A stretch of 64,000 nt of DNA from Pseudomonadota bacterium (GTDB taxonomy: Bacteria; Pseudomonadota; Gammaproteobacteria; Acidiferrobacterales; Acidiferrobacteraceae): contig JAJYDT010000003.1 in the NCBI GenBank assembly GCA_021777335.1, positions 1 to 64,000 on the forward strand. Direction: 5' to 3'. The stretch's first letter is position 1. Every line of letters starts with the position of its first letter. A program made the translations under genes and the position numbers. This document shows positions 24,780 to 28,339 of the stretch, piece by piece. Below the pieces are notes generated by a model. That model did not search any database. It saw nothing but the letters and a program-made list of their open reading frames with translations, and was not told the DNA's origin.

Positions 24780-24780
<1 letters not shown>

Positions 24781-25844
24781 TGTCTACCCGGCTTCGCAAT
24801 GACCGGCTGCTGCGGGCCCTGGCCCGCCAACCGGTGGATATGACCCCGGTCTGGTTGATGCGCCAGGCCGGGCGGTATCTGCCGGAATACCGCGAGGCAC
24901 GGGCGCGGGCCGGGTCCTTTCTTACCCTCTGCACGACCCCTGAATTGGCATGCGAGGTGACGCTGCAACCCGTGCGACGTTTTCCGCTCGACGCGGCGAT
25001 CCTGTTCTCCGACATCCTCACCATCCCCGATGCCATGGGGCTTGGTCTGGAGTTCGATGATCAGGGGCCACACTTCAGCCGGCCCTTGCGGTCAGCCGCC
25101 GAGATCGACCGGCTCGGGGTGCCGGATCCGGAAGAGGCGCTTCGTTACGTGCCTGATACCGTACGCCTGGTGCGGCGCGAACTGGACGGCATGGTCCCGC
25201 TCATCGGGTTTTCCGGATCACCCTGGACACTGGCGACCTATATGGTGGAAGGGGGATCGAGCCACGATTACCGCCTGATCAAGGGGCTCTGTTTTACGGA
25301 GCCTGCGGCCGCGCGTCGCCTGCTCGATGTCTTGGCGCGCGCGATCACGGTCTATCTCAACGCCCAGATCGCGGCCGGTGCCCAGGCCATCATGCTGTTC
25401 GATACCTGGGGCGGCGTGCTGACCGAACATGGTTATCGCGAGTACTCGCTTGACCCTATGCGGCAGGTGGTTGCAGGGCTCACGCGCCAGGCGGACGGAC
25501 GCGATGTGCCGGTCATCGTGTTCACAAAAGGGGGTTCCGCATGGCTCGAAGCGCAGGCGGACCTTGGGGTCGATGCCCTTCAGCTCGATTGGACCGTGAG
25601 CCTGGCGTCTGCCCGCGCGCGGGTTGGAGACCGGGTGGCCTTGCAGGGGAATCTCGATCCGGCACTGCTGGTGGCGCCTGTGGCGCGGATGGAGGCTGAG
25701 GTCAGGACCCTGCTGGCGGACTACGGGCCCTGGCCAGGCCATGTGTTCAATCTGGGTCATGGGGTGACGCCCGATGTCGACCCCGGACACGTCGGCAGGC
25801 TCGTGGACGCCGTGCATCGACTGAGTCTCGCATACCACCGCTAA
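24780..25844 (+). CDS. hemE: Uroporphyrinogen decarboxylase
   Basis: HemE decarboxylates the four acetates of uroporphyrinogen III to give coproporphyrinogen III. The 354-aa protein has the N-terminal signature [16 protein letters not shown], the catalytic region [20 protein letters not shown] and the GNLDPALL and HVFNLGHGV motifs. The start is GTG 24780, overlapping the gltD stop as TAGTG. The gltBD-hemE order is shared with pseudomonads. The later heme-related genes hemW and hemJ lie elsewhere in the window on the other strand. Confidence 0.97.
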
Positions 25845-25872
25845 ATCAGTATTCCCTTATGGGAATGGTGGT

Positions 25873-26085
25873 TTATGCACATTGTGCTGAGGCTGGCAAT
25901 AGCCGGCCCGACAATTTTTTTCAAACCAGAGCGTTTCGCAGCTGATCGGTGTTATCAGTTGAAAACATTATGTTTTCTCGCCAGTCTATTTTTTGGTCAA
26001 ACTAAAGAAAAATAAGGAATCAGGCCTTGATCGGAGTGTCTTTCAGCACACTGTCAACAATGTTATCCACAGCTTCTGTGGGTAA
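25873..26085. promoter_or_regulatory. Cluster of three DnaA-box matches (candidate origin-like or DnaA-regulatory site)
   Basis: TTATGCACA at 25873-25881 and TTATCCACA at 26063-26071 are perfect matches to the TTATNCACA consensus on the plus strand. TGTGGGTAA at 26077-26085 is a one-mismatch box (TTACCCACA) on the minus strand, facing the second box across 5 nt. Between the first two lie AT-rich runs and a palindrome. Possible roles are a replication origin, a DnaA-titrating or DnaA-reactivating locus (datA/DARS-like), or DnaA control of priA. The dnaA gene is not in the window, and gene directions do not diverge from this point. Confidence 0.5.
25961..25977. repeat. 17-bp perfect palindrome
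   Basis: GAAAACAT-T-ATGTTTTC is a perfect inverted repeat with a single central base, inside the AT-rich gap and between the outer DnaA-box matches. It is long enough for a dimeric regulator. It has no flanking T-run pattern of a terminator. Confidence 0.6.
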
Positions 26086-26170
26086 TTGGACCTTTCGGTT
26101 TTTTCTCAACGAGTTACGGTCTCATGCGTGGGCCGATGCTCCACCGCAACCCCCTCCGGCCCCCTGATTC

Positions 26171-28339
26171 ATGCCGACGCTACCGCGGGTATCCGTTGCG
26201 GTACCGGCTCCGCGCCGGGTCCTGTTTGATTATCTGTGGCCGGAAGGGATGTCTTTGGTTCCGGGGGTGCGGGTGCGCGTGCCGTTTGGATCCCGCAGCG
26301 TCGTCGGCATCGTGGTCGCGCTGGACGTTCAGAGCGCCATCGCACCCGACCGGCTTCGTCCCGTCACCCGGGTCCTTGATGAAACCCCGCTGTTCGGCGC
26401 GGGACTGTTGCGGCTTTTACGCTGGGCCGCTGACTACTATTGCCATCCCATCGGCGAGGTGATGAACGCGGCGTTGCCACGCACACTGCGTGAGGGTGCG
26501 GCGCTGCCTTGCGGGGCGCGTCTCTGGAGCCTCACCACGGAAGGGCGTGCGCGCCTTGAGCCACCGGGCAGGGGTCCGCTCGCGGCCCGGCTGTGGGCGG
26601 TCTTGCGCCGGCAGACCACCGTTGCCGAGGAGGGACTCACGCCCGCAGGGCGCGCCTGGTTCGCGCGCTGGCACGGCCAAGGGTTCGTGGTCGCCCACGA
26701 GGCGCCACTTGTGACCCCACCCGAGGCGCCGGCCGCCGCGCCGACGGTGCTGAATGAGGCGCAGCGGCATGCCGCGTCCGGGATCGAGGCGCTCGCCAAG
26801 GACCCCAGGCCGGTGCTCTTGCACGGTGTCACCGGCAGTGGCAAGACCGAGGTGTATCTCGCGGCTATCCGCGCCACGCTCGGCCGCGGTCTGCAATCGC
26901 TCGTGCTTGTGCCGGAGATCGGGTTGACACCGCAGTTCGTCCGCCGTCTCGAATGTCTCAGTGCGACGATTGTCCTTCTGCATTCCGGGCTTTCCGATGG
27001 CGAACGCGCACGTGCCTGGACTGCGGCTTACCGGGGAGAGGCGGCGATCGTGGTGGGGACGCGGTCGGCCGTGTTCGCGCCGCTCGCACGGCCCGGGCTC
27101 ATCGTGGTTGACGAGGAGCACGACCTCTCCTACAAGCAGCACGAGGGATTCCGTTACCATGGGCGCGACCTTGCGGTTCTGCGCGCTCATTACGAGCGGG
27201 TGCCGGTAGTGCTCGGTTCGGCGACGCCATCGCTCGAGAGCCTGCACAACGCAGCGCTCGGCCGTTATCGTCTGCTGTCGCTCCCGGGCCGCGCGCTGGC
27301 CCAGAAGATGCCCGGCATCCAGATCCTCGACTTGCGGCGTCTGCCGCTTGCAGACGGCATATCACCCCCGCTGCTTGAGCGGCTGCGCGCGGTGTATGCG
27401 GGCAGGGATCAGGCGCTCCTCTTTCTGAACCGCCGCGGTTTTGCCCCGGTGCTTACCTGTCCTTCCTGCGGCTGGATCGCCTCCTGCACCCGCTGCGATG
27501 CGTACTTCACCTGGCATCGCGGAAGTGCCCGCCTGCGATGCCACCATTGCCAGTCGGAGCAACCCGTGGCTTCGCGCTGTCCGATGTGCGCCTGCGAGAC
27601 GCTCAAGCCCCTCGGTGCCGGCACCGAGCGGATCGAGCAGGCGCTCAAACGCCACTTCCCGGAGGCGATTGTGGAGCGCATAGACCGTGACACGACATCC
27701 GGCAAGGGGGTCCTCGCCAAACGTCTTCGGAGCGCCGAAGACCACGCGGATTTTCTCGTGGGTACGCAGATGTTGTCGAAAGGCCACGATTTTCCACGGG
27801 TCACACTGGTGGCCGTGCTTGCCATCGACGGGGCGCTCAATAGCGCGGATTTCCGTGCCCCGGAGCATGCTGCCCAGTTGCTGATCCAGGTCGCCGGCCG
27901 CGCGGGACGTGGCCAACGCCCAGGTGAAGTGTGGGTCCAGACGCAGCGCCCCGATGACCCGCTCTTCGCCGCCCTGCGGACACACGATTATCTCCGGTTC
28001 AGTGTCTCCACCCTGCGCGAACGGGAGGCAGCAGGATACCCACCATTTGGCCATCTCACACTCCTGAAGGCGCAGTCCAAGCGTCCTGGCGAGGCCCTGG
28101 ACTTTGTTTCCGCGGCGCGTGCGCGGGTCGACGGGCGGGTTCCGGACATCGAGCTTTTTGATCCGGTACCGAGCCTGATGGAGCGGCGTGCCGGCTGGCA
28201 CCGCGCACAGCTGCTGGTACGAGCGACCTCCCGCGGCTCGATGCGGCGCTTTCTCATGCGCTGGATGCCGGAACTGGAAGCGCTCGGTAGCCGCGTCCGC
28301 TGGCATCTTGACGTGGATCCGCAGGTGATCGAGACATGA
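26171..28339 (+). CDS. priA: Primosomal protein N' (replication restart helicase PriA)
   Basis: PriA recognises abandoned replication forks and reloads the replisome. The 722-aa protein has the N-terminal 3'-DNA-binding domain (VSVAVPAPRRVLFDYLWPEG), Walker A in LLHGVTGSGKTEVY, DEEH box in IVVDEEHDLSYKQ and helicase motifs through VAGRAGRGQRPGEV. Two zinc-binding groups lie between helicase lobes (CPSCGWIASCTRC and CHHC with CPMCAC). The start is ATG 26171, matching the usual PriA N-terminus. It follows a DnaA-box-containing gap. Confidence 0.97.
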   Translation: MPTLPRVSVAVPAPRRVLFDYLWPEGMSLVPGVRVRVPFGSRSVVGIVVALDVQSAIAPDRLRPVTRVLDETPLFGAGLLRLLRWAADYYCHPIGEVMNAALPRTLREGAALPCGARLWSLTTEGRARLEPPGRGPLAARLWAVLRRQTTVAEEGLTPAGRAWFARWHGQGFVVAHEAPLVTPPEAPAAAPTVLNEAQRHAASGIEALAKDPRPVLLHGVTGSGKTEVYLAAIRATLGRGLQSLVLVPEIGLTPQFVRRLECLSATIVLLHSGLSDGERARAWTAAYRGEAAIVVGTRSAVFAPLARPGLIVVDEEHDLSYKQHEGFRYHGRDLAVLRAHYERVPVVLGSATPSLESLHNAALGRYRLLSLPGRALAQKMPGIQILDLRRLPLADGISPPLLERLRAVYAGRDQALLFLNRRGFAPVLTCPSCGWIASCTRCDAYFTWHRGSARLRCHHCQSEQPVASRCPMCACETLKPLGAGTERIEQALKRHFPEAIVERIDRDTTSGKGVLAKRLRSAEDHADFLVGTQMLSKGHDFPRVTLVAVLAIDGALNSADFRAPEHAAQLLIQVAGRAGRGQRPGEVWVQTQRPDDPLFAALRTHDYLRFSVSTLREREAAGYPPFGHLTLLKAQSKRPGEALDFVSAARARVDGRVPDIELFDPVPSLMERRAGWHRAQLLVRATSRGSMRRFLMRWMPELEALGSRVRWHLDVDPQVIET

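What the first reader, a model, noticed from the sequence alone, without database searches (positions are those of the whole stretch)
25845..26170. DnaA-box cluster in an AT-rich gap between hemE and priA
The gap contains two perfect TTATNCACA boxes (25873-25881, 26063-26071) and a third one-mismatch box facing the second across 5 nt (26077-26085), in a stretch I count at about 42 percent G+C amid GC-rich genes. The gene next to it restarts replication. In Caulobacter the origin also lies beside hemE. It could be oriC, a DARS/datA-type DnaA-control locus, or DnaA regulation of priA. The long head-on gene blocks on both sides speak against oriC.
Basis: partly seen in the sequence, partly recalled or inferred. 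Interest (0 to 1): 0.6.

Follow-up and report, generated by a model that had tools for sequence, protein, structure and literature searches.

The report
DARS-type DnaA-reactivation module before priA
The DnaA boxes in this gap are not a replication origin but part of a conserved, roughly 215-base control element built like the E. coli sites that recharge the replication initiator DnaA; it recurs upstream of the fork-restart gene priA across many gamma- and betaproteobacteria, which suggests this control is far more widespread than the few relatives of E. coli where I found it described.

Summary
The gap holds TTATGCACA (25873), TTATCCACA (26063) and a facing TTACCCACA (26077); a fourth, weak box (26051, CTGTCAACA) lies 3 nt before the second. 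The last three form III-3nt-II-5nt-I(inverted), exactly the three-box core of E. [quoted passage not shown] The core is conserved upstream of priA through the window's order. The outer box is conserved too, same strand, 188-193 bp upstream of box II. Between them lie fixed-position IHF- and Fis-consensus patches. The same module sits at many other loci. In a 124-genome class sample, 28 of 105 core sites lie under 400 bp upstream of priA (0.01 expected). GC skew does not change sign here, and several genomes carry two to five cores, so this is not oriC. It also varies unlike an RNA hairpin. Best reading: a DARS-type element, related to but arranged differently from DARS2. DnaA reactivation itself is inferred, not shown. 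Regulation of priA by the same complex remains possible. In the held literature DARS2 conservation is described mainly for relatives of E. coli; I found no mention of the priA location.

The parts
24780..25844 (+). hemE (uroporphyrinogen decarboxylase), left flank
   Evidence: ORF, Pfam PF01208 4e-132
25873..25881 (+). outer DnaA box TTATGCACA, 190 bp upstream of box II
   Evidence: a perfect box on the same strand at -193..-188 in 28 of 39 non-redundant relatives, shuffle mean 0.01
25952..25964 (-). IHF-like patch (2 mismatches to WATCAANNNNTTR here); at most 1 mismatch at this place in 23 of 39 relatives
   Evidence: binding not tested
25984..25998 (.). Fis-consensus site GTCTATTTTTTGGTC (0 mismatches) in the conserved T-tract/TCAA patch
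   Evidence: perfect consensus at this place in 26 of 39 relatives; binding not tested
26051..26059 (+). DnaA box III of the core, weak (CTGTCAACA, 3 mismatches)
   Evidence: TTATTCACA at this place in G019
26063..26071 (+). DnaA box II of the core, TTATCCACA (TTATCCACAG in nearly every relative)
26077..26085 (-). DnaA box I of the core, inverted, TTACCCACA, 5 nt from box II
26097..26113 (+). approximate place of a patch (TTT....ACAAGC..TTAG) conserved only in the priA-linked copies, shifted about 3 nt here; possibly the priA promoter
   Evidence: inference
26171..28339 (+). priA (primosomal helicase), right flank
   Evidence: PriA_3primeBD, DEAD, Zn ribbon and PriA_C domains

Best explanation
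The stretch 25873-26085 is a DARS-type (DnaA-reactivating sequence) module. Shown: boxes III, II and I have the DARS core order, orientation and spacing; an outer DnaA box and IHF- and Fis-consensus patches stand at fixed distances upstream; the module is conserved upstream of priA and also occurs at unrelated loci. Inferred from E. coli: ADP-DnaA binds II and III side by side and I head-to-head with II; IHF and Fis bend the spacer so that DnaA on the outer box joins or gates the complex; contact between the AAA+ domains of the I- and II-bound molecules expels ADP; apo-DnaA leaves and binds ATP, raising ATP-DnaA for initiation at an oriC elsewhere.
For: E. coli DARS1 and DARS2 cores read III-3-II-5-I(inverted), as here, and the same finder sees no core at datA or E. 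coli priA. Core found upstream of priA in nearly all order relatives examined. A search using only boxes II and I recovered box III at exactly 3 nt in 77 of 104 non-priA and 18 of 18 priA-linked sites. Outer box, IHF and Fis patches at fixed places, far above shuffles in the priA set and also enriched in 90 non-priA sites. Class sample: 105 sites in 73 of 124 genomes, reversed control 0; 28 within 400 bp upstream of priA. DnaA is 63% identical to E. coli DnaA and keeps Asp269, Arg285, Leu290 and Arg334. A Fis homologue (49% identity) and four IHF/HU-family hits are present. Core geometry and head-to-head mechanism: PMC5742627, PMC8682772; IHF/Fis need of DARS2: PMC4245941.
Against: No DnaA, IHF or Fis binding and no nucleotide exchange has been shown. 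Box III (3 mismatches) and the IHF-like site (2 mismatches) are weak in the window itself. Relative to the core, the Fis and IHF patches are in the opposite order to E. coli DARS2, and the outer box is on the opposite strand to box V. Some relatives in families f5 and f6 have lost box I. The IHF and Fis labels rest on consensus matches only.
Confidence: 0.77

Rival explanations
1. A DnaA-controlled priA promoter: DnaA, with IHF and Fis, represses or activates priA in step with the cell cycle, as at nrdA or polA, and the conservation reflects transcription control rather than nucleotide exchange.
For: Recurrent place 24-209 bp upstream of priA, 26 of 28 in one orientation; a priA-specific conserved patch just downstream; E. 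coli DnaA regulates via double boxes 2-3 bp apart (PMC11317965), which the III-II pair matches; f5 genomes keep III-II without box I.
Against: 77 of 105 class-sample sites are not within 400 bp of priA, and non-priA sites share the module's geometry. In G023 and G038 an intervening gene separates module and priA. An inverted box I at 5 nt is a DARS feature absent from the datA and E. coli priA pieces checked.
Confidence: 0.14
2. A chromosomal origin (oriC) or secondary origin.
For: In complete relatives priA lies about 85-190 kb from dnaA.
Against: No skew change in the window; in G007 the sampled skew changes sign at least about 100 kb from priA; skew in G023 and G028 was too weak to decide. 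The same core occurs in two to five copies in some genomes.
Confidence: 0.02
3. A passive DnaA-titration site or datA-like site that lowers ATP-DnaA.
For: High-affinity box, IHF-like site and outer box; datA also combines DnaA boxes and IHF.
Against: The three-box core is absent from E. coli datA; titration alone would not require invariant head-to-head spacing and a fixed 190-bp outer box.
Confidence: 0.05
4. An RNA element: the palindrome is the hairpin of a terminator for the gltBD-hemE operon.
For: UUAUCCACAG-CUU-CUGUGGGUAA folds at -16 kcal/mol, z -3.0, and a T-run follows in the window.
Against: Across 27 distinct copies the left arm is invariant while the right arm varies without compensation; pair 5 is standard in only 37%. 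The module recurs away from hemE.
Confidence: 0.02

Closest known systems
E. coli DARS1 (bioD-uvrB gap)
   Same: Core III-3-II-5-I(inverted); box II TTATCCACA followed by G; intergenic. Cores in three Aeromonas loci have uvrB as a flanking gene, as DARS1 does.
   Different: DARS1 needs no added factor in vitro (PMC5742627); no IHF-consensus match was found near it. Here IHF- and Fis-like patches and an outer box at -190 are conserved, and the neighbour is priA.
E. coli DARS2 (between ygdT and mutH)
   Same: Same core; IHF and Fis sites and a further DnaA box (V, at -197) within about 200 bp on the same side.
   Different: Order from the core is IHF (-83/-99) then Fis (-137) in E. coli, but Fis-like (-78) then IHF-like (-111) here; the outer box is on the opposite strand; different locus.
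E. coli datA
   Same: DnaA boxes combined with IHF.
   Different: No three-box core found there; datA promotes ATP hydrolysis on DnaA, the opposite effect.
DnaA-bound double boxes upstream of nrdA, polA, purH (PMC11317965)
   Same: Two same-strand boxes 2-3 bp apart, as III-II here.
   Different: The paper lists these as double boxes and reports no DARS activity for them; whether they have an inverted third box at 5 nt was not checked here.

Membership tests
DARS (DnaA-reactivating sequence) | Core of three DnaA boxes, same spacing in DARS1 and DARS2, box I opposite to II and III | tested here: met
   III-3-II-5-I(inverted) at 26051-26085, as in E. coli DARS1 and DARS2; box III is weak in the window (3 mismatches)
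DARS (DnaA-reactivating sequence) | Intergenic site with core conserved among relatives | tested here: met
   hemE-priA gap; conserved through the order and beyond
DARS (DnaA-reactivating sequence) | Stimulates ADP release from ADP-DnaA | not testable with these tools
   needs purified DnaA
DARS2 | IHF and Fis sites near the core | tested here: inconclusive
   Consensus matches at fixed places in most relatives; in the window Fis 0 and IHF 2 mismatches
DARS2 | Order and spacing of IHF, Fis and box V as in E. coli, beside mutH | tested here: not met
   Order differs, outer box inverted, locus is priA. Not filed as a DARS2 orthologue
oriC | GC-skew switch at the site | tested here: not met
   +0.033 left, +0.041 right
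oriC | One per chromosome, usually near dnaA | tested here: not met
   Two to five copies of the core in several genomes; dnaA on another contig
datA | DnaA boxes around IHF, ATP-DnaA hydrolysis, no DARS core | tested here: inconclusive
   Window has the DARS core that the datA piece lacks; activity not testable

The most novel reading that the evidence does not exclude
One IHF/Fis/DnaA complex both recharges DnaA and gates the priA promoter, tying fork-restart capacity to the initiation cycle; DARS modules would then be a common, relocatable cis element of gamma- and betaproteobacteria, with priA-linked copies near the origin rather than mid-replichore.
Probability: 0.3. Interest if true: 0.8.

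Novelty: new variant of a known kind. Interest (0 to 1): 0.62.

Why it matters
DARS control of DnaA has been studied mainly in E. coli; DARS2 core and Fis-site conservation is described for gamma-proteobacteria related to E. coli (PMC4245941, PMC8682772) and, in one review, for E. coli-proximal beta- or gamma-proteobacteria (PMC5742627). The pattern here predicts sites in 73 of 124 sampled class genomes, many at a nameable gene, which makes the generality of DnaA reactivation directly testable. If priA-linked copies are oriC-proximal in general, comparison with the mid-replichore DARS2 of E. coli would test why position matters.

Tried and rejected
oriC: skew, multiplicity and dnaA location argue against it. 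The density of perfect boxes alone is uninformative genome-wide (25 against 22 reversed). RNA hairpin/terminator: arms do not covary and the module recurs away from hemE; no Rfam family matched the window. datA: lacks the core. A promoter with -35 in box I and -10 17 bp downstream was considered by eye but the -10 matches are poor and not conserved. Searching the held papers for priA with DnaA boxes or DARS gave nothing relevant. A second DARS core in the window's own genome was sought with up to 3 mismatches: only a poor 3-mismatch match elsewhere.

Full report
OBSERVATION. The gap between hemE (24780-25844) and priA (26171-28339) contains the three boxes exactly as listed: TTATGCACA 25873-25881 (+), TTATCCACA 26063-26071 (+), TTACCCACA 26077-26085 (-). 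G+C is 46.6% for the gap and 42.3% for 25873-26085, against 63.4% for the window; none of 5000 dinucleotide shuffles of the gap reproduced two perfect boxes or a three-box core. Perfect boxes as such are not enriched in the genome (25 against 22 reversed).

NOT AN ORIGIN. GC skew is +0.033 left and +0.041 right of the gap, without a switch. dnaA-dnaN-recF-gyrB is on another contig. In the complete relative G007, priA is at 3.21 Mb, dnaA at 0 and the sampled skew changes sign near 3.30-3.34 Mb, with weak values around zero. In G023 and G028, priA is 95 and 85 kb from dnaA and the skew is too weak there to place the origin. Several relatives carry two to five copies of the core.

CONSERVATION. 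A DNA search of relatives hit the 26054-26085 stretch repeatedly (29 of 29 bases identical in two other families). With priA coordinates, the element lies upstream of priA in nearly all order relatives examined, mostly 80-260 bp away. The organism is placed in the Acidiferrobacter family through a named relative, L108, whose contig matches G017.

IDENTITY. E. coli DARS1 (bioD-uvrB gap) reads, in the orientation used here, TAATACACA TGG TTATCCACA GGAAT AGTGGATAA; DARS2 reads TTCTTCACA ACT CTATCCACA GAAAA GGTGAATAA. The window reads CTGTCAACA ATG TTATCCACA GCTTC TGTGGGTAA. Order, orientation and spacing are the same. PMC5742627 defines the DARS core by exactly this (boxes I-III, same spacing in both, box I opposite), and PMC8682772 describes head-to-head I-II contact as the step that expels ADP. 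The finder sees no core in the E. coli datA or priA pieces. An unbiased check: a database scan used only boxes II and I; box III then appeared at exactly 3 nt in 77 of 104 non-priA and 18 of 18 priA-linked sites (at most 2 mismatches) and at almost no other distance.

MODULE. The outer box is conserved: a perfect TTATNCACA on the same strand at -193 to -188 from box II in 28 of 39 non-redundant order relatives (shuffle mean 0.01). An IHF consensus (at most 1 mismatch) at -118 to -105 occurs in 23 of 39 (0.51), a perfect Fis consensus at -84 to -74 in 26 of 39 (0.25). Ninety non-redundant sites away from priA show the same peaks: outer box (at most 1 mismatch) 37 and 15 in two adjacent bins at about -190, IHF 52, Fis 26, median bin 1. 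So a module of about 215 bp keeps its geometry independent of the neighbouring gene. In the window the Fis consensus is perfect (25984-25998) and the IHF-like site has 2 mismatches (25952-25964).

DISTRIBUTION. In a 124-genome class sample TTATCCACAGNNNNTGTGNNTAA gave 105 sites in 73 genomes and no reversed-control site; 28 sites lie under 400 bp upstream of priA (0.01 expected), 26 in the same orientation. Other recurrent neighbours include uvrB in three Aeromonas loci, the place of DARS1 in E. coli; most other neighbour genes were recognised only by sequence clustering and by eye.

ALTERNATIVES. The palindrome folds as RNA but across 27 distinct copies the left arm never changes while the right arm breaks pairs without compensation, as for a protein site. 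Control of priA remains open: the place and orientation are consistent and a priA-specific patch follows, but most sites are elsewhere, and G023 and G038 have a gene between module and priA. Some f5 and f6 genomes keep III-II but lost box I.

TRANS FACTORS. The genome's DnaA is 63% identical to E. coli DnaA and keeps Asp269, Arg285, Leu290 and Arg334; Fis (49% identity over 77 aa) and four IHF/HU-family matches are present.

VERDICT. DARS-type module, not a DARS2 orthologue: order of IHF- and Fis-like sites, outer-box strand and locus differ. Binding and nucleotide exchange are inferred.

Noticed in passing
G000:C28:21170-21190 (L209 1671-1691): Another perfect double box in the same genome, TTATGCACA-3nt-TTATACACA, in a gap near lptF/lptG-family and RDD genes; resembles E. 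coli DnaA-regulated double boxes.
   Followed up: partly
L033, L045, L050, L052 (family f5); L026, L028 (f6): priA-linked copies keep boxes III and II but have lost the inverted box I.
   Followed up: partly
L039 500-1396; L025 744-1457: Genes (a PEP-CTERM-like protein; an SDR-like protein; named by eye) lie between the module and priA in G023 and G038.
   Followed up: partly
L210, L211, L212, L213: Second DARS-type cores elsewhere in G020, G003, G044 and G025.
   Followed up: no
L098, L150, L166: Methylophaga loci carry two cores 0.4-0.8 kb apart in one stretch.
   Followed up: no
window 25851-25866 and 25961-25977: Two short inverted repeats in the gap (ATTCCC-TTAT-GGGAAT just after hemE; GAAAACA-TTA-TGTTTTC); function unknown.
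   Followed up: no
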